The notes: a model not told the origin generated them from the letters alone. A stretch of DNA of 40,876 nucleotides from Phycisphaerae bacterium SM23_30 (GCA_001303695.1 LJUC01000003.1:1-40876); one strand, 5' to 3'; positions 7,991-29,612 are shown, counted from the first letter of the stretch. Translations and numbers: made by a program.

Positions 7991-9676
7991 ATGAAGCGTT
8001 ACATATTTATAAGTCTTTTTTTTGCAGTAATTTACGGCTGTGGCACCCAGGCGCCGCCTCCTTCAGAACATCCGGATGTGCCCCCGACATTTCGAGGCAC
8101 GGTGGGTTCGTACTGCGAATTATTTCCGGATAACCCGGTTCGAGTGCAGGCGTACTCACTGGTATTGGGACTTTCAGGGACGGGCTCTAGTGAGTGCCCG
8201 CCTACCATTAAAAGCTATCTGGTAAAACAGCTGCGCAGTTTAAGAGACCGGGGCTATCTGCCGAACATTTACCGTCAACTTACGGCCGAACAAATCATTG
8301 CCAGTAGCAGCACTGCTGTTGTTGAAGTCATCGGGACGGTACCCGCCCGGGCGCCCAAAGGTGAGCGCTTAAATGTAGAAGTAACGGTATTGGAGGGGAC
8401 ACAAACGACCTCTCTCCAGGGGGGCTGGCTCATGCCCACGGACCTACGCCAGGTTGTGGGCCGGTACACGGGCCGGCCGTTGGCAAGACAACCCACCGCC
8501 CGGGCGGCGGGGCCTATTTTTATCAATCCCTTGCCCCTATCATTAGTCACGGGTCAAAAGGCTGATCCACGTCGCGGTATAGTATTAGGCGGAGGGCAAT
8601 CCACCGCAGATCGCACCATACGATTATCCTTATTAAGGCCGGATTTTCGTATCGCCCAACAGATTCAGAACCGCTTGAACAGCCGTTTTGAAGAACCCGA
8701 GGGCCCAAAAGTCGCCGAAGCCACCCGGGAATACGTTAATCTGCGCATCCCCCCCTCATATCGCAACCGTTACAATCATTTTGTGTCCTTAGTGTGGGCG
8801 TTGTTTCTGCAGAACAGTCCCGGTTTTCTGGATAACAAACTGAGTGAACTTCAAATTTTAGCTGGTCAACCCGGCCAAGATTATGAAACGATCTCACTGG
8901 CATGGGAAGCTATCGGCCGGCCCGCTCTGGGAAATTTAGAGCTTCTTTACCGGGAAGAAGGTTTGGGCGAGGTGTCATTTTACGCCGCCCGGACCGCACT
9001 TAACCTTGGGGATCCCCAGGCTATTAACGTGCTGATAACCATGGCTCAAGATGAGAATCATCCTTCTCAATTACCCGCGATTCAGGTGTTAAGCGAGAAT
9101 TCCTCGAACGTGCGATCCCGATCGACGTTGCGCAAATTAATCCATGACAAAAACCATCAAATACGCTTGTGGGCCTACCAAGGTCTGCGTAAAACCGGAG
9201 ATCCAAGTATTCGTTCCGTGGCCCTAAGCAGAGATTTTGGGCTGGAGGTAGTGGACAGCTCCGGGGAAAAAATCATTTACATCTGGGCGGCACTTGATCC
9301 CCGTATAATTATTTTCGGCGAGGATTTGCGGTGCCGACAAAATATATTTTTCGAGTCGCAAGATGAAGCAGTGCTCATAAACGCCGATGCGGACGACAGG
9401 CTACTTACTATTACACGAAGACTAGCCGGGGGAAATGAATATATGTCGTTAAGAAGTTCCTTTGTGGTGGAAGATATGATACAAACCATGGCTCGGCCGT
9501 GGAAAAGCATTCTGGACGAAAGACCGAGGGCGGGCGGATTGAACTTTTCAGAGATTGTAGGGATTCTTTATGAGTTGTGCGAAAAGAAAGTGATCCCGGC
9601 CCGGTTTGAGCTGCACCGGGTTGGGGGCGGTCCTAATCCGTTAGCTAGAGAAGGCGGCAAAGGCAAGGGAGAATAA
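7991..9676 (+). CDS. Lipoprotein with FlgI (flagellar P-ring)-like domain and HEAT-like repeats
   Basis: A short hydrophobic signal ends in a lipobox-like IYGC, so C17 is the probable lipidation site. Residues 45-235 resemble FlgI, the periplasmic P-ring protein: the GLSGTG motif at 60-65, the EVIGTVPARAPKGERLNVEV segment at 112-131, SLQGGWLMPTDL at 141-152, and RLSLLRPDFRIAQQIQNRLN at 211-230, which matches the 'PDF..A..I...IN' of FlgI. Residues 265-410 look like HEAT-type helical repeats (LGNLELLYREEG, DPQAINVLITMA, HQIRLWAYQGL). The remaining 150 residues are of unknown type. FlgI proper is about 370 residues, is not a lipoprotein and has no HEAT repeats. No other flagellar gene is in the window, so I infer a non-flagellar ring or scaffold role at the envelope. 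AAAGGTGA precedes the ATG. Confidence 0.75.
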   Translation: MKRYIFISLFFAVIYGCGTQAPPPSEHPDVPPTFRGTVGSYCELFPDNPVRVQAYSLVLGLSGTGSSECPPTIKSYLVKQLRSLRDRGYLPNIYRQLTAEQIIASSSTAVVEVIGTVPARAPKGERLNVEVTVLEGTQTTSLQGGWLMPTDLRQVVGRYTGRPLARQPTARAAGPIFINPLPLSLVTGQKADPRRGIVLGGGQSTADRTIRLSLLRPDFRIAQQIQNRLNSRFEEPEGPKVAEATREYVNLRIPPSYRNRYNHFVSLVWALFLQNSPGFLDNKLSELQILAGQPGQDYETISLAWEAIGRPALGNLELLYREEGLGEVSFYAARTALNLGDPQAINVLITMAQDENHPSQLPAIQVLSENSSNVRSRSTLRKLIHDKNHQIRLWAYQGLRKTGDPSIRSVALSRDFGLEVVDSSGEKIIYIWAALDPRIIIFGEDLRCRQNIFFESQDEAVLINADADDRLLTITRRLAGGNEYMSLRSSFVVEDMIQTMARPWKSILDERPRAGGLNFSEIVGILYELCEKKVIPARFELHRVGGGPNPLAREGGKGKGE

Positions 9677-16307: not shown

Positions 16308-16335
16308 TTGACAAGTGAAGCACAATTTGTAAAAT
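16308..16335 (+). promoter_or_regulatory. Sigma70-type promoter for the amidohydrolase operon
   Basis: TTGACA at 16308-16313 and TAAAAT at 16330-16335 are separated by 16 bases. The predicted start near 16342 would give a leader of about 120 bases that includes the two hairpins described below. It is the best promoter upstream of the eight-gene operon. Confidence 0.55.
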
Positions 16336-16462: not shown

Positions 16463-19177
16463 ATGAAAACTTCCATGGCGCCAAAAGTCTCAAAACGAAC
16501 CATTCTGTTAGCTTCAATTATCGGGATTATGGTCAGCACTGCGGTTTTGACGGCCGGCTGGGTCGGTTTCCAGGACCGGGATGCTGCCCACGCCGGGTCC
16601 TTGCCACCCATCAAGGCGGAAAGGGACCGGCAGCCCGCACAAACTGAAACCGGGGCGTTGAAAACCGGCACCCTGGTCGAGGATAGCCCCGAGGTGATAG
16701 TAATCAAAGGCGGCCGTATTTATACCCAGACCGCCGCCGGGGTGGTTCAGGCCGACATCCTGGTCGAGGACGGCCGGATCAAGGCCGTCGAGCCAAACAT
16801 CCGGGTACCGACGGACGCCCGGCGCATCGACGCCCAGGGTCTGATCGTCAGCCCCGGACTGATCGACGCCCACAGCAGTCTATGGACCACGTCGGCCTCA
16901 CAGGGCGACGGCGCATCAGACGGTTCATTGAATATCGTTGATGCCCTCGATATTTATGATGATTCGTGGGAAGAAGTCGCGGCTCAGGGGGTCACCGCCG
17001 TCTATGTTCAGCCCCGCGCCGGGACGCTGGGCGGTCGAGGGGCGGTGCTGAGCGTCGATCGGGCCGCATCCATCGAAGAACTACTTCTGGCGGGCGACGC
17101 CTCCCTGCACGGATCGATCGGCAGCGAAGGTAATTACAACACCATTAAAAGTGTCCTCGAAGCCGCCAAAAAGTATGGAGAACAATGGGATAAATATCGC
17201 GAAGCGATAAAGAAAAAGACTGAAATAGAAAAAGAAACTCAAGCACCGGAGGAGCCGCCCAGACGTCCCGGTCGCGGCCGGGGCCAACGACAGACTGAGC
17301 GGCAACGACAGGAACAAGCCTCGCAAAGGGAGCAAGAAGAGAAGGTTGCCGAGCCTAATGAGCCCGAGGTTGATGATATTAAAGAGTTTATCCTTAAAGT
17401 GCTCAAGCATGAGATCCCTCTGCGGATCGAGGCAAAAGAAGTGGATGACCTGCGATATGCCCTGGCCCTGGCGGATGAATTCAAAGTATCTCTGGTGATC
17501 GAAAGCGCCGACCAGGCCCATCAGGTGACCGATGATTTGGAAGGCCGAAACGTAAAATACGTGCTGGGTCCGATGTTTGAGCCGCCGCCGGCACTGGTAC
17601 AGGCGCCGGAAGAGGCGGATGCCCTGCGTCAGATACGCAGGCAGTTTCCCGGACTTATCCCTCCTATCCCCTACGCCCCTTCACCTGCTTCACGGCCCAG
17701 CGGGAAGCCTGAGCAATGGCCCTGTTCTATAACAGATATGAAACCTGTTTGGGCGCTGGGGGGCTTCAGTTCGGCGGATCGCGATTCCCGTCTGCTGAGG
17801 CATCATGCGGCGGAGGCGGCGGCCCGGGGCGTGAAGGCAGACGAGGTGCTCAAGGCGATGACCATCGGAGCGGCGCAGGTGCTGGGCGTGGCAGATCAAG
17901 TCGGATCAATCGAGGTGGGCAAACGAGCCGACATTGCCGTATTTAACGGCCACCCCACCGATCCGGCGGCGATGGTAAAGGCGGTCATAGTGGGCGGGCG
18001 CCTGGTCTTCGAGAATGATAACGCCAAGGGGCCCGGCTCGTCGGCGGAACGTTTGGAAGCCAAGGTGGAGCTGCCGGCGGTGTTGCCGGATAAGTTTGCC
18101 CTCAAGTCCACCCGCGTGCTGGATGCTTCGGGCAGGTTCGTACCGATGGTGATCGTGGTTGAAGAGGGCCAAATTACGGCCCGGAAAGTGGTAAAGACAG
18201 GGCAAGTAGTAGGTGAGGTTATCGATCTGGGCGACGCGGTAGTCACGCCGGGGCTGATTCAGGCCCATACCGATTTAGGGTTGGGCGCTGAGATGGACCA
18301 GACGGGTATGGCCGATGCCAGTTACCTTCGGGCGGCCGATGCCTATTTCCCCATCGGCAATCGTGCGGCCCAAGAACTGCAAAAGCAAGGATTTACGGCG
18401 GCCCTTTTAGCGCCGGGCTCCAATAACGTCCTGGCCGGGGTATGCGCGGTGGTCCGCTTCGATCAGACCTGCGATAAGGCGAAATACCTGATCGAACCCG
18501 AGGCCGGTCAGAAGCTGGTCCTGGCAGCCAGTGCCCGGGTGGCCGAACGCTATCCGGTAAGTCTATTCGGCCAGGTGGATTTTTTGACCTCGGCTCTGGA
18601 AGGTGACCTGCCTGATCTGTATCTTTATCATTCCGAAGCGATTCAAGATCAGATCGACGCCCAGCGCCGCCGGATCATTCAGTCATTGAACAACGGAGGC
18701 GGTCGGGCGTTTCTGGTAGCGGAAAATGATATGGAGGTCAAAGCTGCCCTGGAATTGATCGAGACATTTGATTTACGCGGGGTGCTGGTGGGGGCCCAGG
18801 AGGTCAATGAAAACTTTGAGCAAATCAAAAGTAAGGCCCTCGGCATTATTGCCCGACCGCCGGGGCTGGGCGCTTTTGATCGGTCTTTTGAGTCGGTGGT
18901 GAAGGCCTCCCAGGCGGGCGTGCCGCTAGCGTTAGGTTTTGCCTCGGCCGAACAGATTCGCCGGTTTGTCAGCCGGGCGGTAGCATTAGGGATGCCCCGA
19001 GAGGCGGCGCTGAAGGCGTTGACTTCCGATGCGGCGCGTATCCTCGGGGTGGGAGACAAGATCGGTCAAATCGCTGAAGGTTATCGGGCCGACCTGGTGA
19101 TCTGGGATGGTTCCCCGCTGGATTTGCGATCCAGGGTAATCAAACTTATCGTGGAAGGAAAGGTCTTGAATGAATAG
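16463..19177 (+). CDS. Exported tandem amidohydrolase-fold protein, both barrels degenerate (operon gene 1)
   Basis: The 904-residue protein has an N-terminal membrane or signal segment (residues 12-33) and two amidohydrolase-like units. Unit 1 (about 77-520) has the start strand VIVIKGGRIYT, PGLIDAHSS where active enzymes have HxH (H137-S138-S139), and the C-terminal 'GSIEVGKRADIAVF' composite beta sandwich. Unit 2 (about 545-904) has PGLIQAHTD (H602-T603-D604) and ends with IGQIAEGYRADLVIW. Neither unit shows the later His, His and Asp ligands, so both are probably non-catalytic. Residues 250-300 are charged and Arg/Gln/Glu-rich. A Pro-rich stretch at 396-425 looks out of register with the paralogues. 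The start may be 16463 or 16478; neither has a strong ribosome binding site. It overlaps gene 2 by 8 bases. Family membership is clear, the function unknown. Confidence 0.8.
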   Translation: MKTSMAPKVSKRTILLASIIGIMVSTAVLTAGWVGFQDRDAAHAGSLPPIKAERDRQPAQTETGALKTGTLVEDSPEVIVIKGGRIYTQTAAGVVQADILVEDGRIKAVEPNIRVPTDARRIDAQGLIVSPGLIDAHSSLWTTSASQGDGASDGSLNIVDALDIYDDSWEEVAAQGVTAVYVQPRAGTLGGRGAVLSVDRAASIEELLLAGDASLHGSIGSEGNYNTIKSVLEAAKKYGEQWDKYREAIKKKTEIEKETQAPEEPPRRPGRGRGQRQTERQRQEQASQREQEEKVAEPNEPEVDDIKEFILKVLKHEIPLRIEAKEVDDLRYALALADEFKVSLVIESADQAHQVTDDLEGRNVKYVLGPMFEPPPALVQAPEEADALRQIRRQFPGLIPPIPYAPSPASRPSGKPEQWPCSITDMKPVWALGGFSSADRDSRLLRHHAAEAAARGVKADEVLKAMTIGAAQVLGVADQVGSIEVGKRADIAVFNGHPTDPAAMVKAVIVGGRLVFENDNAKGPGSSAERLEAKVELPAVLPDKFALKSTRVLDASGRFVPMVIVVEEGQITARKVVKTGQVVGEVIDLGDAVVTPGLIQAHTDLGLGAEMDQTGMADASYLRAADAYFPIGNRAAQELQKQGFTAALLAPGSNNVLAGVCAVVRFDQTCDKAKYLIEPEAGQKLVLAASARVAERYPVSLFGQVDFLTSALEGDLPDLYLYHSEAIQDQIDAQRRRIIQSLNNGGGRAFLVAENDMEVKAALELIETFDLRGVLVGAQEVNENFEQIKSKALGIIARPPGLGAFDRSFESVVKASQAGVPLALGFASAEQIRRFVSRAVALGMPREAALKALTSDAARILGVGDKIGQIAEGYRADLVIWDGSPLDLRSRVIKLIVEGKVLNE

Positions 19178-20384
19178 TACAAACGCAAAATCAAGCCTTC
19201 TTGTCGTCTTGTTGATACCGGCCCTGCTCGTCCGGGCGCCGGTGGTTCGTGCCGACGACCTGGTGATCAGGGCAGGGGCTGTTTACACCATGACAGGTGA
19301 GCCGCTGCGACCGGGGGCGGTATTAATATCCAATGGCAAGATAGTCAGGGTGGCGCGGTCGGTCAGCGCCCCCGAAGGCGCTCAGGTCATCGATTTGGGT
19401 TCGGCAGCTCTAATGCCGGGTATGATCAACGGCCTGGCACGAATGGGCGTGGTCGGCGGCAGCGCCGAATTTACCAGTGAGATTACGCCTGATTTTCCCG
19501 TTTTATCAAGTGTGGACTTGAATCATCGGTCGTTCAAGACCGCGGTACGGGACGGCATCACGAGCGTTTGTCTGCATCCGGGCAGCGACAATATAGTGGC
19601 GGGCTTATCGGCAGTGGTTAAGACGGCCGGCGACGACCTGAAACAGCGAATCGTGAAAAAGGATTCGGGTCTGTTGATAATAGTGGGTTCCGAACCTGCC
19701 GCCCGCAACCGGAGAGACGTCGGTCCTACGGGTACTATTTATAGCCGGCTGCCCACGACGCGTATGGGTCTGGTTTGGGTGTTGCGGGAGACGATGCTGA
19801 AGGCGAAGGAAGACAGGCCGCCGGAATTGGCGCGTCTGAACGACGCCCTGGATAAGAAGCTGCCCTTGTATGTGGAAAGTAAGAATTTTTACGACCTGAC
19901 GACGGTGCTGACGTTGAGCGAGGAATTCTCGTTTGAGCCGATCTTGTTTTCGGCGGATGAGTCGTTCAAGGTGGCGGAACAATTAGCCGGTAAGAAGGTG
20001 TCCATCATTTTAGGGCCGTTGTCATCGGCTTCACCCGGGGTAGGCGTAGCAGGGGGTAGAGGGGGTCGCGGCGGCGGGGTCGGAGAGAGCAGCTGGAGCA
20101 AGGCTGATGTGCTTCACAAGGCCGGTATTAAATTTGCCCTGTCGGGGGAGGGGATGCTGCCCCAGGCGCGGTTTGCCGTTCGTTGTGGATTGCCGGCCGA
20201 CGCGGCCCTGTCAGCGGTCACGCGGACGCCGGCGGAAATTTTGGGAATTGATGATCGGGTCGGGACCATCGCGGCCGGTCGCGATGCCGATCTGGTGGCG
20301 CTAAGCGGCGAGCCGCTTAGCCTGACAACTAAGATTCGCTGGGTCATGGTCGATGGCGTGATCCGGTATGAGGCGAAAGAGTAG
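19170..20384 (+). CDS. Exported amidohydrolase-fold protein, metal ligands lost (operon gene 2)
   Basis: This 404-residue protein has a signal peptide (residues 1-28, ending VRADD) and one amidohydrolase-like unit. The family frame is recognisable from LVIRAGAVYTMTG, the GITSVCLHPGSDNIVAGLSAVVK segment near 125-147, the MGLVWVLRETMLKA helix and the C-terminal DRVGTIAAGRDADLVAL. At the HxH position the sequence is L89-A90-R91. The strands that should carry His read YVES and FSAD, and the last-strand Asp position reads ALSGEG. No metal ligand remains, so I infer a pseudoenzyme. A Gly/Arg-rich insert lies near 291-306. Its ATG overlaps the end of gene 1, and AAGGAAAGG upstream is a fair ribosome binding site. 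Confidence 0.8.
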   Translation: MNSTNAKSSLLVVLLIPALLVRAPVVRADDLVIRAGAVYTMTGEPLRPGAVLISNGKIVRVARSVSAPEGAQVIDLGSAALMPGMINGLARMGVVGGSAEFTSEITPDFPVLSSVDLNHRSFKTAVRDGITSVCLHPGSDNIVAGLSAVVKTAGDDLKQRIVKKDSGLLIIVGSEPAARNRRDVGPTGTIYSRLPTTRMGLVWVLRETMLKAKEDRPPELARLNDALDKKLPLYVESKNFYDLTTVLTLSEEFSFEPILFSADESFKVAEQLAGKKVSIILGPLSSASPGVGVAGGRGGRGGGVGESSWSKADVLHKAGIKFALSGEGMLPQARFAVRCGLPADAALSAVTRTPAEILGIDDRVGTIAAGRDADLVALSGEPLSLTTKIRWVMVDGVIRYEAKE

Positions 20385-20387
20385 ATT

Positions 20388-21728
20388 ATGTTGATCAAAC
20401 GAAAACACACAAGAGTACGTAGATACTGGACCTTGGCCCCGGCGGCACTGGTGTTAATGAGCTTGACACAGGGACTCTGGGCCCAGAGGGGTGAGATTGC
20501 CGTCAAGGCCGGTAAGATCATCACCGCAGCGGGAGAGACGATTGAGAACGGGACCATCCTGGTCCGGGACGGCAAGATCACTCAGATCGGGCAGAATCTA
20601 AGAATTCCCCTTAATGCCCGCGTGATTGATGCATCGGAGAAGGTGGTGATACCGGGACTGGTGGTGGCCCACAGTTCGCGAGGGATGGACCAGGAAAATG
20701 AGCGTAATCCGGAGGTGCCTTTTACCTCGGTGCTCGATTCGGTGGATACCGGCCAGGCTTACTTCGATGACTGCCGCCGCAACGGGATTACGTCGATAGC
20801 CGTCGTTCCCGGCAATGACACTCGAATCGGAGGCCAGGCGGCGGTGATCAAGACGCGAGGCATATATGTATCGGATATGATCCTCAAACGCTCGGCGGGT
20901 ATAAAGATCTCACTTGATCCCACTCAGGGCGAGAGCCGCTTGAGCCATCGCAATAATCTACGTAAGGCACTCAAGGAAATTCAGGAATACATCGAAGAAC
21001 TCGAAGAAAAAACGGGCGCCGAAGCCCTGCCGGATGTGCGGCGGGAAGCGATGTGTCGGCTTCTCAAAGGGGAAATACCGGCGTTTCTCTATGTGCCGGC
21101 GCCGATGGACGTGGCTTTCGCAGTGGAGCTGGCCAAGGAGTTCCATCTCAAAGTAATCCTGGTGTTGGGCCGGGATTGCTATAAGGCCGTCGATCAGATC
21201 GCCGAAAGCGGTTTGCCGGTTATTCTTGACGGTGAACTGGTTTTCTGGGAACGCAACGAGCGGACCGAGGAGGAAAAGCAGATCGTGGTTCCCCAAATAT
21301 TCCGCGAGGCCGGCGTGAAAGCCACTTTCCAGGCCGGGACCGGAGCACCTACCGGCAACCTGATCGGGACTAACTTCCTCTGGTTCCAGGCGGCTACGGC
21401 GATGAAATACGGGGCATCGGCCGAGGAGGCCCTGCGGGCCATTACGCTTTTACCGGCGGAAATTTTAGGTATAGAGAAATTTGTCGGTTCGCTCGAAGAA
21501 GGTAAGGACGCCGACATGGTGATCTTAAGCGGCGATCCTCTTGAACTCAATAGCTGGGTCGAGACGGTGATCGCCGACGGTGAAGTGATCTATGAAATCA
21601 GGGAAGATAAGCCCCTGCAAGAGCTTCTGAAGAAGACAGTAGGGGGTATTGCAATCAGCACGGACAGGGGTATTGAAATCAACGAAAAAGTCAGGCAAAT
21701 AAAAGAAACGTCGAGTAAGAAAAAATGA
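20388..21728 (+). CDS. Exported amidohydrolase-fold protein, metal ligands lost (operon gene 3)
   Basis: The 446-residue protein has a basic N-terminus and a hydrophobic segment (residues 13-31) ending GLWAQ, a likely signal peptide. One amidohydrolase-like unit follows: IAVKAGKIITAAGE at 37-50, PGLVVAHSS (H95-S96-S97 in place of HxH), GITSIAVVPGNDTRIGGQAAVIK and the C-terminal VGSLEEGKDADMVIL. The later positions read LYVPAP, LVLGRD and TFQAGTG rather than His, His and Asp, so only one of the usual metal ligands survives. Unlike the other members it lacks a Gly/Arg-rich insert but has a Lys-rich tail of about 45 residues beyond the fold. It starts three bases after gene 2 and overlaps gene 4 by four bases (ATGA). 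Confidence 0.8.
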   Translation: MLIKRKHTRVRRYWTLAPAALVLMSLTQGLWAQRGEIAVKAGKIITAAGETIENGTILVRDGKITQIGQNLRIPLNARVIDASEKVVIPGLVVAHSSRGMDQENERNPEVPFTSVLDSVDTGQAYFDDCRRNGITSIAVVPGNDTRIGGQAAVIKTRGIYVSDMILKRSAGIKISLDPTQGESRLSHRNNLRKALKEIQEYIEELEEKTGAEALPDVRREAMCRLLKGEIPAFLYVPAPMDVAFAVELAKEFHLKVILVLGRDCYKAVDQIAESGLPVILDGELVFWERNERTEEEKQIVVPQIFREAGVKATFQAGTGAPTGNLIGTNFLWFQAATAMKYGASAEEALRAITLLPAEILGIEKFVGSLEEGKDADMVILSGDPLELNSWVETVIADGEVIYEIREDKPLQELLKKTVGGIAISTDRGIEINEKVRQIKETSSKKK

Positions 21729-24295
21729 AAAGCCAGCCCGTTGTTATAAGATTGTTCCTTTTGGCGGCGATTTTAGGGGCCGTGATGCCGGCGGCGGCCC
21801 AGGAGGCGCCGGCAAAGGTTTATTATGCCGCCCGGATTTGGCCTGCCAGTCAACCGCCCATTGACGACGGGGCCCTGGTGGTCCGCGACGGTAAGATCGC
21901 GGTCGTGGGAGAAAAAGCAAAAATCCAGATCCCCCAGGGCGCCAAAGAGATCGATCTGGGTGATTTGGCGATTATTCCCGGCTTGATCGTCGCCCAGACG
22001 TCCATCTCGGCAGCGGCGCAAGACAATGAAGAGGCAATTACCCCGCAGCTACGCGCGGTCGATAGCTACGATGCGTATCAGGAGTATAAGTCGATTGTAT
22101 CAGGCGGGGTGACGACGGTTCAGCTTTCGCCGGGGGCGCGGCGCTTGATGCCGGGCCAGGGGGCGGTGGTCAAGCTGGCCGGGGCGGTTCCCCAGGAGCG
22201 TATTGTACGCGCTCAGGAGAGTTTGCGATTGATCCTGGGCGACCTGTCGGAGAATCCGCCCGGTATCTTTGAGGCGCCGATACCGGCCGATCCGATCGAC
22301 AACCCTCTGCTTCCGCCCCGCATCCAGTTGGCCTCCGGTCGGGCGGGGACCATAGCCCTGCTGCGGGCCATTTTTGCCGCGGCCGCCTCGTATCAGCCCG
22401 GCCCAGGGCCGGATCAGCAATTAACTGCTGTCCGGCATTATATTAAGAACCGACTGCCCCTGCGGGTGACGGCTACCGAAGCGGCTGATATTCAGGCGGC
22501 TCTGGAACTGGCCGAAAGCTACCATCTGGTGTTAACGCTGGTCGATCCCGAAGAAATCTTCCGGTTCAAAGATATTTACCCAAAACTCGCCGCCCAAGGT
22601 CATGGCGTTATCTTTAATGCCGGTATTCGCCCCGGGCTTATTATCAACGAGCCGGTCCAGGACGAGGAGGCGCCCGAGCGGGAGCCGGTGGGGAAGCTGG
22701 TGCGTGATCTTATGGCGGCGGGGGTGGCCGTAACTATCCGGCCCGCCGACGAAGCCGATTTAAGCGAGATGCTCTTTGTGGCCGGTCTGGTCGGCCAGGG
22801 CGGTCTCGATCCGCAGCAGATGCTTGAATTATTAACGATTAATCCGGCTCGAATGCTGAGAGTTGACGATCGGGTGGGCTCACTGGCGGCCGGTCGCGAT
22901 GCCGACTTTGTGGTGCTCAGCGGCGATCCGTTTGCCGCCCATGCGACGGTGCGGGAAGTTTATGTCGATGGCGCGCGGGTTTGGGAGACGAATAGCAACG
23001 ATGATTTCACTTTAATCCAGGCGGATAAGATTTACACCGGGGATGGTCGGGTAATCCCCGATGGTTCGATAGCCATCCAGGGTAAAAAGATAACAAGCAT
23101 CGGACCGGATGTATCGGCCCCGATGGGCGCGAAGGTTAAAAGATTCCCCGCCGGCGCCGTAGTAATTCCCGGTATGATCGACATGCGGACATCGATCACC
23201 GTCAGCAGCAATAACAATTCGACGGCAAAACACGTGCGCCAGGGCGGGATCGCCACGGTTTTGAACGTGCCGGCAGGAAGCGGGGCGATGCCGGTCCGGG
23301 CTTATAAGCTGGGTGATGAATCCGAAGAGTTTGAAGGTCCCGTGGCCATGAAATTTGCCGTTACGGGCAACCTGACAACTACGGTTCCCAACCTGCGCCG
23401 CACCCTCCAGCGCGGCAAAGATTATGCCGAAACCTGGTTCGAATATGAAAAAAAGCTCACCGAGTATCAGATCAAGCTCAAGGAGTATGAGGAAACATTA
23501 AAGAAATGGGAAGAAGCCAAGGCCGCGGCGGATGAAGCAATCCGGCGACAGGCAGGCCCGGAAAGAGGCCAAACCGGCCAGAGAACCGCAAGGGCCGGTC
23601 TGGGACAACGTGTGGCAAGAACACCGCCAACGAGACAACGCGGCCAGGAACAGCGCGGCCCAGAACAGCAGCCGGAGACTCAAGAGGTGAAATTGCCGCC
23701 TATGCCTGTTAAACCCAAGGAACCAAACGAACCGGCAACCCAGTCCAATCTGGAGCCTTATCGTAAGCTGTTTGCCGGTAAAATGTTGGCATTAGTAGAA
23801 GCCGAACGAACGACCGAGCTTGAAATAGCCGTAAAACTGTTCGGTGAAGAGTTCAAGATGCCCACCATGCTCATCGGCGCCGGTGACGCCTTTCGCGAAC
23901 CGGAGCTATGGGCGGGCAATGGGATGTCGGTGCTGGTCGGGCCGGAGATGGTGTGGACAGTCGATGGCGCAACTATCAACCAGGCTCAACTGATTGTAAC
24001 CCAGGGCGGTAAAATAGGTTTTGGCTCGGGCGCCACCACCGGCTCCCGAAATCTTCCTCTGGCGGTGACTTACGCGGTTCGATGTGGTTTGGGGGTGGGC
24101 GACGCCCTGGCCGGGTTGACGTCCTGGCCGGCGGAATTATTGTACCTGGATGATCGGATCGGCAGGCTCGCCGCCGGGCGCGACGCCGACCTGGTGGTCT
24201 TGAGCGGGCCGCCGTTCGAGCTTACTTCACGAATCCTGGCGGTGATGATCGACGGACAATGGGTTTATAAAGAAGGCGGGCCGAAGGATAAATAA
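21725..24295 (+). CDS. Exported tandem amidohydrolase-fold protein, both barrels degenerate (operon gene 4)
   Basis: This 856-residue protein has a signal peptide (1-26, ending AAAQEA) and two amidohydrolase-like units. Unit 1 (about 30-422) has PGLIVAQTS (Q91-T92-S93) at the HxH site and DDRVGSLAAGRDADFVVL near its end. Unit 2 (about 427-850) has PGMIDMRTS (R488-T489-S490) and DDRIGRLAAGRDADLVVL. The downstream His and Asp positions are also replaced. A long charged helix at about 573-605 leads into an Arg/Gly/Gln-rich insert at 606-652 and a Pro/Glu-rich linker to 672, at the same place as the insert in gene 1. The tandem form repeats that of gene 1, suggesting duplication of a two-barrel ancestor or repeated fusion. 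The start is coupled to gene 3 by an ATGA overlap. Confidence 0.8.
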   Translation: MKSQPVVIRLFLLAAILGAVMPAAAQEAPAKVYYAARIWPASQPPIDDGALVVRDGKIAVVGEKAKIQIPQGAKEIDLGDLAIIPGLIVAQTSISAAAQDNEEAITPQLRAVDSYDAYQEYKSIVSGGVTTVQLSPGARRLMPGQGAVVKLAGAVPQERIVRAQESLRLILGDLSENPPGIFEAPIPADPIDNPLLPPRIQLASGRAGTIALLRAIFAAAASYQPGPGPDQQLTAVRHYIKNRLPLRVTATEAADIQAALELAESYHLVLTLVDPEEIFRFKDIYPKLAAQGHGVIFNAGIRPGLIINEPVQDEEAPEREPVGKLVRDLMAAGVAVTIRPADEADLSEMLFVAGLVGQGGLDPQQMLELLTINPARMLRVDDRVGSLAAGRDADFVVLSGDPFAAHATVREVYVDGARVWETNSNDDFTLIQADKIYTGDGRVIPDGSIAIQGKKITSIGPDVSAPMGAKVKRFPAGAVVIPGMIDMRTSITVSSNNNSTAKHVRQGGIATVLNVPAGSGAMPVRAYKLGDESEEFEGPVAMKFAVTGNLTTTVPNLRRTLQRGKDYAETWFEYEKKLTEYQIKLKEYEETLKKWEEAKAAADEAIRRQAGPERGQTGQRTARAGLGQRVARTPPTRQRGQEQRGPEQQPETQEVKLPPMPVKPKEPNEPATQSNLEPYRKLFAGKMLALVEAERTTELEIAVKLFGEEFKMPTMLIGAGDAFREPELWAGNGMSVLVGPEMVWTVDGATINQAQLIVTQGGKIGFGSGATTGSRNLPLAVTYAVRCGLGVGDALAGLTSWPAELLYLDDRIGRLAAGRDADLVVLSGPPFELTSRILAVMIDGQWVYKEGGPKDK

Positions 24296-24312
24296 ATGGA
24301 GGACAGTCACGG

Positions 24313-25578
24313 ATGATGAGGCGTTACATGGCAGTCTTTTGCACTCTGGGCATTATCGCGGGCGCTCTGTCGGCTTTGGCGGCGGACGAGGCGAATAAGG
24401 ATAATCTTCCTCGTTATGCGCTATTGATCGGTAAAATCATCACCAGCGCAGGCGATCCTATCGACAACGGGATGATTTTAATTTCCGAAGGCAAGATCGA
24501 AGCTATCGGCCCTCAAAAAGAGGTCGAAATTCCCGAAGGTTATGGAGTGATCGATCACGCCAAGCATTTTGCCATGCCCGGGATAGTGGAACCGCACAGC
24601 CATCAGGGCTCGATGATGAACGATCTGAACGACAGCATCTATCCGACCACCTCGGGGCTGCGGGTGCTGGATCAGATTCAACCCTATAATGAGGCCTTGA
24701 AAGTGGGCATTCAGGGCGGGGTGACGACGATCCTGCATATCCCCGGCAGCGGCAATAACTTCAGCGGCTTCGGGATCATTATGAAGACCTGCCCCGGCAC
24801 CCCTGAGGAGGTTATAGTCCGGTTTCCCGGCGTGATGAAGGTTTCCCAAGCCGGTAATCCCGAAAGACGTTCATCGGGTGAGCTTGGATCGGGACGGACG
24901 GGGATGAACTGGGTCCTGCGGGAAAAGCTCCGCAAAGGGCAGCAGTACAACCGGAAGTGGCTCGATTATGAACAGGGTCGGACCAATGTCAGGCCCGAAG
25001 TGGATTTGCAGTTTGAATATATGCGGCCGGCACTGAACGGCGAGATACCCACTCTGGTTCATACGCAGATTTTCCAGGTGGTCATGGAAACCGTTAGTAT
25101 GATGAACGATGAGTTCGGGTTGAATGTGATCATCGGTCATGGCACCTTCGACGGCTATGAGGTGGGCCCTTATATCGTCGATCGGCCCAAGATTCGAGTG
25201 ATGGCCGGACCCCGAAACACCAATCTTGATCGGGAGATCGGGCAGGTGGTGGGTGTGGTCAACGGTTATTACGAACGCGGCGTCAGGGGCCTTGGAGTTA
25301 ATACCGATTCCGGCGTCCTGCCCCAGGAGGAAAATCAGTTTCAGGCCAACATCGCCGTCCGTTACGGCTGGCCCGAAGAGAGTGCCGTCTATGGCCTGAC
25401 GATTAACCCCGCCAAAGCATTGATGATCGACGATCGGGTGGGATCGCTGGAGGTCGGTAAAGACGCCGACATTTTAATCAAGAACGGCCCGGTGCTGGAC
25501 CTGCGCAGCACCCTGCTGAAAGTATTTATCAATGGGAAAATTGTTTACGATGTTGAGAGAGACCGACGTATATTTTAA
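24313..25578 (+). CDS. Exported amidohydrolase with complete metal site (operon gene 5)
   Basis: The 421-residue protein has a signal peptide (residues 1-24, ending ALAAD) and one complete amidohydrolase unit. PGIVEPHSH carries the HxH pair (H95, H97). MKVSQAGNPERR offers a Lys at the beta-4 position (K176). LVHTQ gives H250, IGHGTF gives H276 and VNTDSG gives D332. This HxH-Lys-His-His-Asp set is the binuclear amidohydrolase pattern, so I expect a functional hydrolase. The sequence is of the imidazolonepropionase-like, exported type; the substrate cannot be read from it. It is the closest relative of gene 6, with long identical blocks such as AGNPERRSSGELGSGR and MNWVLREKLRKGQ. GGAGG lies before the ATG and the gap to gene 4 is 17 bases. 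Confidence 0.88.
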   Translation: MMRRYMAVFCTLGIIAGALSALAADEANKDNLPRYALLIGKIITSAGDPIDNGMILISEGKIEAIGPQKEVEIPEGYGVIDHAKHFAMPGIVEPHSHQGSMMNDLNDSIYPTTSGLRVLDQIQPYNEALKVGIQGGVTTILHIPGSGNNFSGFGIIMKTCPGTPEEVIVRFPGVMKVSQAGNPERRSSGELGSGRTGMNWVLREKLRKGQQYNRKWLDYEQGRTNVRPEVDLQFEYMRPALNGEIPTLVHTQIFQVVMETVSMMNDEFGLNVIIGHGTFDGYEVGPYIVDRPKIRVMAGPRNTNLDREIGQVVGVVNGYYERGVRGLGVNTDSGVLPQEENQFQANIAVRYGWPEESAVYGLTINPAKALMIDDRVGSLEVGKDADILIKNGPVLDLRSTLLKVFINGKIVYDVERDRRIF

Positions 25579-26824
25579 AACCCGGATCCCGGCGGTCGTG
25601 GTCCTGTTAATTACGCTGACCTGGTCTGTGGCTGCAGCCAATCCGGAAGATAAATCCCCCCCGCGGTATGCGGTACGGGCGGGTAAGATTGTTACCTGTG
25701 CGGGCGACCCGATTGATAACGGGACGATCCTGGTCTCGGGGGGTAAAATCGAGGCTATCGGTCCGCGCGATCAGATCGAGATACCCGAGGGTTATAAGGT
25801 GCTCGATCATCGCGAGATGTTCGCGATGCCGGGTTTGGTCGAGGCCCATTCACACGTGGGGGCCCAGGGAGGATTTAACGACTCGGTGTATCCGACAGTT
25901 TCCGGATTGGAGATAGCGCACCAGATTCAGCCCTATAATGATGCCTTAAAAGAGGCCATCCAGGGCGGCGTGACCACGATTCTCTATATTCCCGGCAGCG
26001 GTAACAACCTGGCCGGGATCGGGGTGGTTATGAAGACCCGCCCCGGCACGGCGGAGGAGGTGATAATTAAAAATCCCGGATGTCTGAAGATCGCCCAGGC
26101 AGGTAATCCGGAACGTCGTTCTTCCGGCGAGCTGGGTTCCGGGCGTGCCGGGATGAACTGGGTGCTGCGGGAGAAGCTGCGGAAAGGTCAGCGTTATTAT
26201 CAGAAGTGGCTTGATTACGAACAAGGCCGCACTGATGTCAAACCGGAGGTGGACCTGCAGCTGGAGATATTCCGACCGGTTTTCAAAGGCGAGATCCCGG
26301 TGGTGATACACACGCAGATGTTCCAGGTGGTGATGGAGACGCTGCGGATGTTTCATGACGAGTTCGGCCTTAAAGGGGCGATTCATCACGGCACCTTTGA
26401 CGCCTATCGGGTGGCTGATGAGGTGGCCAAGCGTGATTTTCCATGCTGCATCGGGCCGCGGGTTACGGTGATGGATCGGGAAAACGGTCAGATCGTCGGG
26501 GTGGTGGCCGGTTATTATGCCCGGGGGGCGCGAAATCTTTTTGTCAACGTCGATGCCACGGGCAGCACGCAGGAGGATTTGCACTTTCAGGCGGCGTTGG
26601 GAGTGCGTTACGGCTGGCCCGAAGAAGACGGTCTTTACGGTCTGACAATCCGACCGGCCCGGTACCTTATGGTCGATGACCGGGTAGGTTCACTCGAAGT
26701 CGGCAAGGATGCGGATATCGTGATTAAGAACGGTCCGGTGATGGATCTGCGCTCGGCGGTGGTCAAGGTGCTGATCGACGGGGAGGTTGTTTACGACGCC
26801 GCCCAGGACCGCAGGATATATTAA
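25550..26824 (+). CDS. Exported amidohydrolase with complete metal site (operon gene 6)
   Basis: The 424-residue protein has a signal peptide (hydrophobic core 13-29, ending AAANPE) and one complete amidohydrolase unit. Its ligands are HxH (H100, H102), Lys in CLKIAQ (K180), His in VIHTQ (H254), His in HHGTF (H280) and Asp in VNVDATG (D335), the same set as in gene 5. It is a tandem duplicate of gene 5, diverged at the nucleotide level, so the duplication is old. I chose the ATG at 25550, which overlaps gene 5 by 29 bases; an ATG at 25532 would add six residues. Neither has a strong ribosome binding site, which fits translational coupling. A 75-base gap then separates it from gene 7. Confidence 0.88.
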   Translation: MLRETDVYFKTRIPAVVVLLITLTWSVAAANPEDKSPPRYAVRAGKIVTCAGDPIDNGTILVSGGKIEAIGPRDQIEIPEGYKVLDHREMFAMPGLVEAHSHVGAQGGFNDSVYPTVSGLEIAHQIQPYNDALKEAIQGGVTTILYIPGSGNNLAGIGVVMKTRPGTAEEVIIKNPGCLKIAQAGNPERRSSGELGSGRAGMNWVLREKLRKGQRYYQKWLDYEQGRTDVKPEVDLQLEIFRPVFKGEIPVVIHTQMFQVVMETLRMFHDEFGLKGAIHHGTFDAYRVADEVAKRDFPCCIGPRVTVMDRENGQIVGVVAGYYARGARNLFVNVDATGSTQEDLHFQAALGVRYGWPEEDGLYGLTIRPARYLMVDDRVGSLEVGKDADIVIKNGPVMDLRSAVVKVLIDGEVVYDAAQDRRIY

Positions 26825-26899
26825 ACCGGGAGGAAAATTTATCGAATTTTTGAAAACGGATGTAGTATCAAGGTTAACCATTATTGGAATTGATGCCTT

Positions 26900-28228
26900 A
26901 TGAAGATATATAACCAAAAAACACATTTCAGACGCTGGGTGGTGGAGATACCGGCTGTTGTTGCCCTGTTGACGATCCTGGCCTGGGGCCAGGAACTGAA
27001 GGAGCGTGCCGTCGCCATCCGCGGGGCCGCCATCGAAACGATCTCCGGTGGACGGATAGAAAAAGGCAATGTTGTCGTTCGCGGGGGTAAAATTGAAGCG
27101 GTAGGCGCCGAGGTAGAAATTCCCGATGACGCCCGGGTGATCGAGGCCGAGGGGATGACGGTAATGCCGGGGATTATCGATCCCTATAGCCGGGCCGGCG
27201 GCGTCACCGGCGGGGGAGAGTTCGTGCGGGTGGCGGATCAGTTTTATCCCTATCAAGAAGTTTTTAAACAGATGTTGCCCTGGGGGATCACCAACCTCTC
27301 AATCACCCCTTCGAGTTTGGGACAAACCGCAGTAATCGCCATTACGCCGGATCTGCCCAAGACGATGGTGATTAACAAAGACGGTAATCTGTTTCTGCCG
27401 GTGACTAATTCCACTTCGAGTCTGCGAGTTCTGCGTGACGGATTGGCTCTCCGCCCCGCCGGCCCGCAAGGTCAGGGTCCGGAGATTCCCACCCGAGCCG
27501 GCAGAGGTAGAGGTCAAAGACGGGGGGATCAGACCCAGCAGCAGCAGCGGCAGCGAGCGGGCCAGCGGGCCGGACAACAAGCCGCAGGCGGGCCATCCTC
27601 GATGGCGGATCCGCTGTGGGCCAAAGTGGTCAAGGGCGAACAATACCTGATAGTTGATGTTGCTAATTCAGCGACGATTCTTTATTTAGGCGAGATTTTG
27701 GAGAAATATCCCGAGGTTAAGGTCGCTCTGAATACTAACGGCAGCACCGTTTTTGAGACCTTAGAGACATTGAAGAAATTTAAGCCGCTGCTTATCCTGC
27801 CGCCGCGCATCGAGAACCAACCAAACAGACAATATCGAATCAACGCGGCGCGGATCGCTCATGAGGCGGGCCTGGAGGTCGCCTTCACCGGGCTCAAACC
27901 CGAAGCGGCCGCCGCTATGCCGGGGATGAGAGCCGGTCGAGGCCAGAGAGCCGCGGCACCGCCGACTCGGGGCGCTTCCGAGGTGAATCGCGATGTGCCG
28001 CTGTTTCCGGTTGCATATCTGGTCAAAGCCGGTCTGCCGCGGGAAATCGCCCTCCTGGCCTTGACGCTTAAACCGGCCCAGGTCATGGGTCTTGCCGACC
28101 GCCTGGGCACCATGGAACCCCAAAAAGACGCTAACCTGCTTATTTTTAGTGGAGATCCGCTCGACCCGGCCAGCCGACTGCTGCGGGTCATGGTGGAAGG
28201 GAAGTTCGTCTATGAAAACAAAAATTAA
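26900..28228 (+). CDS. Exported amidohydrolase-fold protein, metal ligands lost (operon gene 7)
   Basis: The 442-residue protein has a basic N-terminus and a hydrophobic export segment (residues 16-30). One amidohydrolase-like unit follows: VAIRGAAIETISGG, PGIIDPYSR (Y96-S97-R98 at the HxH site) and a C-terminal ADRLGTMEPQKDANLLIF. The positions for the later ligands read IVDVAN, ALNTNG and AFTGLKP, so no metal ligand survives. An Arg/Gly/Gln-rich insert occupies about 199-231, and a second short one (RAGRGQRAAAPPTRG) sits near 343-357. It is the first gene after the largest gap in the operon (75 bases), so an internal promoter is possible, though I see none. Its 3' end overlaps gene 8 by 17 bases. 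Confidence 0.8.
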   Translation: MKIYNQKTHFRRWVVEIPAVVALLTILAWGQELKERAVAIRGAAIETISGGRIEKGNVVVRGGKIEAVGAEVEIPDDARVIEAEGMTVMPGIIDPYSRAGGVTGGGEFVRVADQFYPYQEVFKQMLPWGITNLSITPSSLGQTAVIAITPDLPKTMVINKDGNLFLPVTNSTSSLRVLRDGLALRPAGPQGQGPEIPTRAGRGRGQRRGDQTQQQQRQRAGQRAGQQAAGGPSSMADPLWAKVVKGEQYLIVDVANSATILYLGEILEKYPEVKVALNTNGSTVFETLETLKKFKPLLILPPRIENQPNRQYRINAARIAHEAGLEVAFTGLKPEAAAAMPGMRAGRGQRAAAPPTRGASEVNRDVPLFPVAYLVKAGLPREIALLALTLKPAQVMGLADRLGTMEPQKDANLLIFSGDPLDPASRLLRVMVEGKFVYENKN

Positions 28229-29612
28229 TAAATCCGGTTTGAAGTTTATGATTTTGGTAATGCTGGGTTTAGCTATTGCTGCCAGTACGGTCATCGCCCA
28301 GGATCGCCCTTTGCGCAGGCCCCCACAACCGCCTCAAACCACACCTGAGGAAACAGAGGAAGAGTCGCCCGGTCCCATCATTGCCATTGTCGGTGGTAAG
28401 ATTTACACCGTAACCCAAGAGATCATCCGGGAAGGAACGATTCTGGTTCAGGACGGCAAGATTCTCAAGGCGGGCCAGGACCTGGCCGTCCCTGAAGGCG
28501 CCGAGGTGATCGACGCCGCCGGTCGGCACCTTGTGCCGGGATTTATCGCTCTTAACGCCAGCCGCATCGGGGTCAGCGGGACGACCGGCGGGCAAAACCT
28601 GGTTCAAGACGCCCTCAATCCCTTTGATCAAAACATGCAATATCTTTTGGGAGTTGGCATCACCACCGTCTGCTCCAGTACCGGCGCCGGAGGCCAAAGA
28701 GGCATGCGCAGGACCCCCCAACCGACCCCGACAGCCCCAGAGGGCGTTTTTGGCAGTACCGGCCAAATCGTTCTTAAGATGACCTACGGCGATATAGAGG
28801 GGATGTTTGTTAAGGAAAATCCCTTTTACGCGGTGCGGTCGGCATCTTTCAGGGGCGGGCTCAACTGCTTCAACTGGAGGGAGGAGCTGAAAAGAGCCCA
28901 GAGCTTTATAAAAGCGCAAGACAACCAGACCGATGAGGGCGAAGGCGGCCGGCGTGGTCAACGTCCCTCCGCCAATCAGGATGTTGTAAGACTGCTTCAG
29001 GGTGAGGCTGTGCTCCGCACCGACGCCCAGACTATAGATCAGATTCGAGATATGATAATTTTTTCTCGTAGTTACGGATATCGAATAATCCTGGAGGGTG
29101 TCGATGAGGGATGGTTGATAGCCGATGAGCTGGGCCCGGCGGGCGTGGCAGCGATCATCACGCCGCGCAGCACCATGACCCCCCAAGCCGGCAGAGAGGA
29201 GATAACCGGGGGCACCATGGAATTGGCTATGCATCTGGAAAGAGCCGGCGTTCCCTTTGCCATCAATGCCCAGTCGGGCTCAGTGAGCCTGGGCGGTATG
29301 GCGGGTAGGGATCTGCAGGGCCTGCCTTTACAGGCGATGTTCGCCGTCAGCGGCGGCTGCTCGGAAAAGTCCGCCCTGGCGGCCCTGACGATAGTGCCGG
29401 CCCGGATGATGGGGCTTCAAGATCGTATCGGCAGCATCGAGGCCGGCAAGGACGCCGACATTTTGATCCTGGACGGTCATCCGCTCGATTATAAAACCTA
29501 TGTCGAAAAGGCCCTGGTCAACGGCAAGGTTTATTACGATAGGGCTGCCGCCCGGATCCTGCCGGTTTTCGATCGCTCGTTCTACGAGCAGCAAATTAAG
29601 ATCGACAAGTAA
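28212..29612 (+). CDS. Exported amidohydrolase-fold protein, metal ligands lost (operon gene 8)
   Basis: From the ATG at 28212 the protein has 466 residues. A signal peptide ends STVIAQ at residue 30 and is followed by a Pro/Glu-rich linker to about 54. The amidohydrolase-like unit shows IIAIVGGKIYTVTQE, PGFIALNAS (N115-A116-S117 at the HxH site), GVGITTVCSSTGAGG and a C-terminal QDRIGSIEAGKDADILIL. Other ligand positions read LRTDAQ, ILEGVD and AINAQSG, so the metal site is lost. A short GGRRGQRPS insert lies in the middle of the chain. The start overlaps the last 17 bases of gene 7 and has GGAAGGGAAG upstream; the longer frame starting at 28092 would hide the signal peptide inside gene 7. 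The gene ends 29 bases before the convergent recJ. Confidence 0.82.
   Translation: MKTKINKSGLKFMILVMLGLAIAASTVIAQDRPLRRPPQPPQTTPEETEEESPGPIIAIVGGKIYTVTQEIIREGTILVQDGKILKAGQDLAVPEGAEVIDAAGRHLVPGFIALNASRIGVSGTTGGQNLVQDALNPFDQNMQYLLGVGITTVCSSTGAGGQRGMRRTPQPTPTAPEGVFGSTGQIVLKMTYGDIEGMFVKENPFYAVRSASFRGGLNCFNWREELKRAQSFIKAQDNQTDEGEGGRRGQRPSANQDVVRLLQGEAVLRTDAQTIDQIRDMIIFSRSYGYRIILEGVDEGWLIADELGPAGVAAIITPRSTMTPQAGREEITGGTMELAMHLERAGVPFAINAQSGSVSLGGMAGRDLQGLPLQAMFAVSGGCSEKSALAALTIVPARMMGLQDRIGSIEAGKDADILILDGHPLDYKTYVEKALVNGKVYYDRAAARILPVFDRSFYEQQIKIDK

What the first reader, a model, noticed from the sequence alone, without database searches (positions are those of the whole stretch)
16463..29612. 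Eight-gene operon of exported amidohydrolase-fold paralogues with ten barrels
Seen: eight consecutive plus-strand genes (13 kb) each carry an export signal and share the same fold markers (xxIxxGxIxT, PGxIxxHxx, GITxVxxxPGS, DRxGSxxxGKDADxVxx). Junctions overlap by 8, 4, 29 and 17 bases or are 3, 17 and 75 bases apart. Two of the genes encode two barrels each. Known: exported amidohydrolases are common, but usually as singletons or pairs. Inferred: such tight coupling of eight paralogues suggests they act together, perhaps as a heteromeric periplasmic complex that captures and hydrolyses an amide or cyclic substrate.
Basis: partly seen in the sequence, partly recalled or inferred. Interest (0 to 1): 0.8.

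Follow-up and report, generated by a model that had tools for sequence, protein, structure and literature searches.

The report
One live enzyme, eight dead siblings
This is a planctomycete operon of eight exported genes encoding ten related enzyme-shaped units, of which only two sister units (one ancestral position) can still bind the catalytic metals; the same nine-position series, almost always in the same order with one live position and eight dead ones, recurs across the phylum, so the dead units are probably working partners of the live enzyme.

Summary
In detail: eight tightly packed plus-strand genes (16463-29612), ten amidohydrolase barrels, all exported. Only g5 and g6 keep the six metal ligands (H, H, K, H, H, D); the other eight barrels lost them. 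Nine ancestral 'slots' (1A, 1B, 2, 3, 4A, 4B, 5, 7, 8) keep the same order in 68 complete clusters (2 and 3 swapped in four sampled loci) and in about 25 Planctomycetota families, at 25-45% identity and with no conserved flanking genes. Two loci, one labelled Aminicenantes, have nine separate single-barrel genes in that order. Slot 5 has all six ligands in 33/33 sequences, the other slots in 0/250. The dead slots are under purifying selection, form old paralogous clades, co-occur with slot 5 (100 genomes have both, of 105 and 103), and fuse with neighbours. The window's g1 is a 1A+1B fusion; g5/g6 duplicate slot 5. A two-gene live+dead version exists in 22 further loci. Best reading: an exported heteromeric hydrolase in which dead paralogues assemble, shape or regulate one live TM0814-type metalloenzyme, as pseudo-dihydroorotase does for aspartate transcarbamoylase. 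Physical assembly and substrate are unproven. I found no published description.

The parts
16308..16335 (+). probable single promoter of the operon (TTGACA, 16 nt, TAAAAT)
   Evidence: consensus match 11/12, best site in the region; 14 sites found against 8.9 expected, so suggestive only
16463..19177 (+). g1, two barrels: slot 1A (about 16685-18022) fused to slot 1B (about 18068-19174); both dead; exported or anchored
   Evidence: Pfam two stretches; ligands lost; 1A and 1B are separate genes in most relatives, fused in 22 of 68 complete clusters
19170..20384 (+). g2, slot 2, dead barrel, exported
   Evidence: positional orthologues fall in one clade apart from the 2/3-swapped loci and a few stray members
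20388..21728 (+). g3, slot 3, dead barrel (keeps first His and bridging Lys), exported
   Evidence: H1 16/20 and K 19/20 in orthologues, but H2 and H4 lost in all
21725..24295 (+). g4, two barrels: slot 4A (about 21725-22999) and slot 4B (about 23000-24292); both dead; exported
   Evidence: Pfam two stretches; AlphaFold mean pLDDT 77 and match to 3ooq, TM-score 0.82 on the target; two separate genes in L168 and L193
24313..25578 (+). g5, slot 5, the live barrel: H95, H97, K176, H250, H276, D332
   Evidence: all six ligands in 22/22 and 33/33 slot-5 sequences; AlphaFold pTM 0.84; 3ooq is the best solved match
25550..26824 (+). g6, second slot-5 copy, live, 64% identical to g5
   Evidence: ligands kept; both copies nearest to Pirellulales slot 5, so the duplication probably postdates acquisition of the cluster
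26900..28228 (+). g7, slot 7, dead barrel, exported
   Evidence: orthologues form one exact clade of 32
28212..29612 (+). g8, slot 8, dead barrel, exported; none of the six ligands in any of 32 orthologues

Best explanation
The operon encodes one multi-subunit, exported (periplasmic) metallohydrolase. Slot 5 (here g5 and its copy g6) is the catalytic subunit: a TM0814/3ooq-type amidohydrolase with a binuclear metal site that would hydrolyse an amide bond, perhaps in a peptide or cyclic amide. The other eight barrels descend from the same kind of enzyme, have lost the metals, and have been kept for about as long as the phylum as obligate partners. They most likely assemble with the live subunit through the conserved beta-sandwich/C-terminal module and stabilise it, shape its substrate channel or tether it. 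Shown: the fold, the ligand pattern, order conservation, co-retention, purifying selection, fusions, and the two-gene live+dead relatives. Inferred: physical assembly, its stoichiometry, and the division of labour. Unknown: the substrate.
For: Same slots in the same order in 18 of 18 untruncated loci from the window's class and 68 complete clusters of 93 loci overall, in about 25 families, while flanking genes are not conserved. All six ligands in slot 5: 33/33; in other slots: 0/250. Positional slots fall into clades: 5, 7 and 8 exactly (support 1.0), 3 exactly apart from the swapped loci, the rest with a few stray members. Co-occurrence of slot 5 and gene 4 in the sampled genomes: 105 and 103 genomes, 100 with both. 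Two clusters that are split between contigs keep both halves. dN/dS 0.05-0.10 for all slots in the cleanest pair, L118/L120. Fusions 1A+1B, 4A+4B, 3+4A+4B, 7+8. 364 of 470 junctions abut or overlap, median -4 nt. In the window every slot is nearest to the Pirellulales-type cluster, so the cluster moved as a unit. In dead slots the best-conserved region is the C-terminal sandwich/helix; in slot 5 it is the barrel half that carries HxH and Lys. Two-gene units elsewhere are also one live gene (6/6) followed by one dead gene (0-3/6), 22 of 22.
Against: No interaction has been measured or modelled: only single chains could be folded, and the g4 model has pTM 0.54, so even the relative placement of its two barrels is uncertain. 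Conserved order and fusion indicate a functional link, which could be a pathway rather than a complex. Slot 3 keeps the bridging Lys in 30/32 and the first His in 24/32, and some 1B and 4B copies keep HxH, so not every barrel need be fully inert. No expression data.
Confidence: 0.66

Rival explanations
1. The dead barrels are separate periplasmic binding or capture proteins, or work on other ligands, in the same pathway as the slot-5 enzyme, without forming a stable complex with it.
For: Each slot has its own conserved residue where the first H of beta-5 was (E in 1A 15/19, Q in 2 14/20, Y in 3 18/20), which fits slot-specific pockets. Clusters can be split in two, so adjacency is not strictly required.
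Against: Nine nearly always single-copy slots in a nearly fixed order, with fusions between neighbours, are more typical of subunits. No transporter or regulator is consistently attached.
Confidence: 0.2
2. The dead barrels are enzymes after all, using a different or mononuclear metal arrangement or metal-free chemistry.
For: Slot 3 keeps His and Lys in most orthologues; 4B keeps the second His in 19/20 class orthologues and often the Asp; L133 and L167 4B keep HxH, Lys and His.
Against: Slots 1A, 2, 4A, 7 and 8 keep almost none of the six ligands across 29-32 loci, apart from the Lys in 12/32 of slot 2; fully active amidohydrolases normally keep most of them.
Confidence: 0.08
3. A decaying tandem array: neutral leftovers of gene duplication with no present role.
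For: Graded ligand loss between slots looks like decay.
Against: Low dN/dS for dead slots, open reading frames throughout, old slot clades, near-perfect co-retention.
Confidence: 0.02
4. The array is mainly structural: dead barrels build a periplasmic cage, filament or surface layer that happens to carry the live enzyme.
For: Eight dead barrels to one live; the C-terminal module outside the barrel core is the best-conserved part of dead slots.
Against: No direct evidence; slot 5 is the slowest-evolving slot and the only one amplified (1-4 copies), which suggests catalysis is the point.
Confidence: 0.04

Closest known systems
TM0814 (PDB 3ooq), Thermotoga maritima amidohydrolase of unknown function
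   Same: best solved relative of slot 5 (E 2e-66) and best structural match of g4 and g5 (TM-score on target 0.82 and 0.84, against at most 0.6 for the other listed matches); ligand residues align
   Different: solved as a single molecule species; substrate unknown; I did not test whether it has dead partners
Aspartate transcarbamoylase-pseudo-dihydroorotase of Pseudomonas aeruginosa (PMC7053772)
   Same: an amidohydrolase-superfamily pseudoenzyme is required for activity and assembly of its partner enzyme; pseudo-DHO domains lack the zinc ligands
   Different: one dead subunit type whose live partner belongs to another fold; not exported
Metformin hydrolase MetCaCb (PMC11271267)
   Same: adjacent gene pair of one live metal-binding paralogue and one metal-free paralogue forming a heterohexamer; neither is active alone
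   Different: ureohydrolase fold; two genes, not nine; substrate known
ClpP/ClpR protease core (reviewed in PMC8197885)
   Same: catalytic and dead paralogues share one assembly; the dead ones are structurally important
   Different: serine protease core; different fold
Tandem live+dead amidohydrolase pairs (L058, L059, L194, L195, L197-L214)
   Same: same subfamily, same live-then-dead logic, 22 of 22 loci
   Different: two genes only; Phycisphaerae ones about 30% identical to g5; I found no published description

Membership tests
Amidohydrolase superfamily (Pfam Amidohydro_1/Amidohydro_3) | sequence-profile membership above the curated cut-off | tested here: met
   all eight proteins
Amidohydrolase superfamily (Pfam Amidohydro_1/Amidohydro_3) | TIM-barrel plus beta-sandwich fold | tested here: met
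   models of g4 and g5 match 3ooq; other slots not modelled
Catalytically competent binuclear amidohydrolase | HxH, bridging Lys, two further His, Asp | tested here: met
   for g5 and g6 and all slot-5 orthologues
Catalytically competent binuclear amidohydrolase | the same ligands in the other eight barrels | tested here: not met
   0 of 250 barrels; so they are not filed as active enzymes
TM0814/3ooq-type subfamily | closest solved relative by sequence and fold | tested here: met
   for slot 5; for g4
Enzyme-pseudoenzyme heteromer | live and dead paralogues encoded together and conserved together | tested here: met
Enzyme-pseudoenzyme heteromer | physical complex, activity dependent on the dead partner | not testable with these tools
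   needs co-expression and purification
Named amidohydrolase equivalogs (imidazolonepropionase, Xaa-Pro dipeptidase, NagA and others) | NCBIfam equivalog cut-off | tested here: not met
   all displayed hits far below cut-offs, e.g. 98 bits against 500

The most novel reading that the evidence does not exclude
A fixed-position hetero-nonameric (or larger) periplasmic assembly, built from nine diverged copies of one enzyme fold with a single catalytic position, of a complexity otherwise familiar from proteasome-, Clp- or chaperonin-like rings, encoded by one operon that passes between lineages as a unit.
Probability: 0.35. Interest if true: 0.88.

Novelty: new variant of a known kind. Interest (0 to 1): 0.74.

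Why it matters
Enzyme-pseudoenzyme partnerships are known mostly as pairs. Here one fold has supplied eight retained dead partners for one live position, kept in nearly fixed order across a phylum whose periplasm is little understood, and a simpler live+dead pair survives in relatives, so the route from pair to nonuple can be traced. Automated annotation would list these as a run of amidohydrolases and overstate the catalytic capacity of such genomes several-fold. The system is directly testable by co-expression.

Tried and rejected
First genome-contig scan with only g5+g6 found nothing because its patterns were too specific. The window's close relatives give no intact cluster: the same-family MAGs carry at most fragments, so the distribution is patchy and the cluster looks acquired. 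Recurrent flanking genes: only one group of close relatives shares neighbours, so no partner outside the operon. Substrate inference from NCBIfam failed: every displayed match is far below cut-off. The g4 model cannot fix the barrel-barrel arrangement (pTM 0.54). Literature searches for planctomycete amidohydrolase clusters, amidohydrolase pseudoenzymes, TM0814 and 3ooq found no description; the library lacks most subscription journals. Inter-slot coevolution was not attempted: fewer than 100 complete clusters. Apparent spread outside the phylum was treated with caution: records labelled Bacillota and Kuenenia turned out to be the same genomes as G508 and G382, listed in the window's phylum; the Aminicenantes label of L168 could not be checked, although most of its 38 sampled family-mates lack the gene.

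Full report
WHAT IS THERE. The operon sits between NAD-salvage-like genes (isochorismatase and QRPTase_N domains) and recJ in a 4.0-Mb, 78.5% complete genome. The best promoter-like site is upstream of g1.

Aligning the ten barrels shows that only g5 and g6 carry the amidohydrolase metal ligands (HxH after beta-1, Lys of beta-4, His of beta-5 and beta-6, Asp of beta-8). The other eight have replaced most or all of them. In class-level orthologues slot 5 has H, H, K, H, H, D in 22 of 22. In a broader set of 31 clusters plus the window, 33 of 33 slot-5 barrels have all six and 0 of 250 others do. Losses are graded: slot 8 keeps none, slot 3 often keeps one His and the Lys, and some 4B and 1B copies keep HxH. 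This is what inactivation of once-active copies would leave.

GENE ORDER. Class-level search gave 111 of 298 genomes with some relative of g5, about 28 of them at roughly 38-46% identity. Fetched 20-kb regions showed eight or nine barrel genes in one order, 1A, 1B, 2, 3, 4A-4B, 5, 7, 8, in all 18 untruncated loci. The second genome scan returned 192 relatives, the best 80 nearly all titled Planctomycetota, all of them MAGs or environmental assemblies as far as their titles show. These and 20 further family-spanning regions show the same order, with slots 2 and 3 swapped in four sampled loci (L126, L154, L180, L190). In total 68 of 93 loci are complete; most of the rest appear truncated by contig ends. 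Slot 5 is present once in 61 of the 68, twice in 5, three times in 1, four times in 1. Two loci (L168, L193) have nine separate single-barrel genes in order, which validates the slots and shows that g1 and g4 are fusions. Flanks are not conserved, so this is not general synteny.

CO-RETENTION AND SELECTION. In 391 sampled Planctomycetota genomes other than the window's, 105 have slot 5 at E<=1e-70 and 103 have a strong gene-4 match, 100 have both. The genomes of L145 and L163 carry 5-7-8 and 1A-to-4 on separate contigs, but keep both. L141 has 3-4-5-7-8 together and lacks 1A, 1B and 2 in the 6.4 kb upstream, so incomplete or rearranged clusters exist. dN/dS (Nei-Gojobori) in the least saturated pair, L118/L120, is 0.05-0.10 for every slot; other pairs range up to 0.46 with saturated dS, slot 5 being the lowest or nearly so.

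ORIGIN. A tree of 283 barrels groups barrels by position: slots 5, 7 and 8 are exact clades, slot 3 is exact once the swapped loci are accounted for, and 1A, 1B, 2, 4A and 4B have a few stray members and, for 1A and 4A, weak support. The slots therefore predate the sampled lineages. In the window every slot is nearest to the Pirellulales-type clusters (54-59% in slot 5), against 42-46% for the cluster of a genome in the window's own order (L060/L167), and the Pirellulales type shares the 1A+1B fusion; the whole operon was probably acquired as a unit and slot 5 then duplicated.

THE SIMPLER RELATIVE. Many Phycisphaerae carry a two-gene unit: first gene with all six ligands, second gene with 0-3 (typically the pattern H-V/T-A-T-G/S-E), in 22 of 22 loci. 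Live+dead coupling is therefore a wider theme of this subfamily, and the nonuple is its extreme form. These pairs were found with g5 as bait, so the sample is biased towards live genes with a neighbour.

STRUCTURE. g5 models with pTM 0.84 and g4 with mean pLDDT 77 but pTM 0.54; both match 3ooq best. Dead slots are best conserved in the C-terminal sandwich/helix; slot 5 is best conserved in the barrel half that carries HxH and Lys.

MECHANISM. Most likely slot 5 hydrolyses an amide substrate in the periplasm and the dead barrels form or regulate the holoenzyme, as pseudo-DHO does for ATCase, MetCb for MetCa and ClpR for ClpP. Assembly, stoichiometry and substrate are inferred or unknown. The resemblance to those systems is functional; membership of a proven heteromer could not be tested here.

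LIMITS. Slot profiles were trained on the window's class and label divergent 1A, 1B and 2 copies poorly; positional labels and trees were used instead. Taxon names come from record titles, some of which are wrong. Ligand calls depend on alignments; in divergent slots the beta-6 His column is offset by a gap. Signal-peptide calls are heuristic. The literature library is partial.

Noticed in passing
L058, L059, L194, L195, L197-L214: Two-gene units of one live and one dead TM0814-type amidohydrolase, always live gene first, in Phycisphaerae and in two family-mates of the Aminicenantes-labelled genome.
   Followed up: yes
L168 and L193: Nine separate single-barrel genes in the same order as the planctomycete cluster, one in a record titled Candidatus Aminicenantes; suggests transfer of the whole cluster between phyla, but the label was not verified.
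   Followed up: partly
slot 4B of most orthologues, e.g. L061:11235-14021 (-): An extra inserted segment (pattern DPITGTWE...SGGPLPEP) inside barrel 4B, absent from the window's g4; no Pfam match.
   Followed up: partly
L172 (G493) and other f56 genomes: Slot 5 amplified to four tandem live copies while every dead slot stays single.
   Followed up: partly
window 37794-40232 (-): Exported serpin with a C-terminal extension that matches a lumazine-binding-like (NTF2-type) domain.
   Followed up: partly
window 6257-7810 (+): Fusion of type I 3-dehydroquinase and shikimate dehydrogenase.
   Followed up: partly
window 7991-9676 (+): Lipoprotein-like protein with a flagellar P-ring (FlgI) segment and HEAT repeats, next to smc and with no flagellar gene seen beside it in the window.
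   Followed up: partly
L120 (CP030884.1), L165, L121, L141: Public record titles that disagree with placement: the Bacillota and Kuenenia titles belong to genomes listed in the window's phylum, and CP030884.1, titled Planctomycetaceae, matches a genome in the window's class; the Gemmatimonadota title of L141 is also doubtful.
   Followed up: partly
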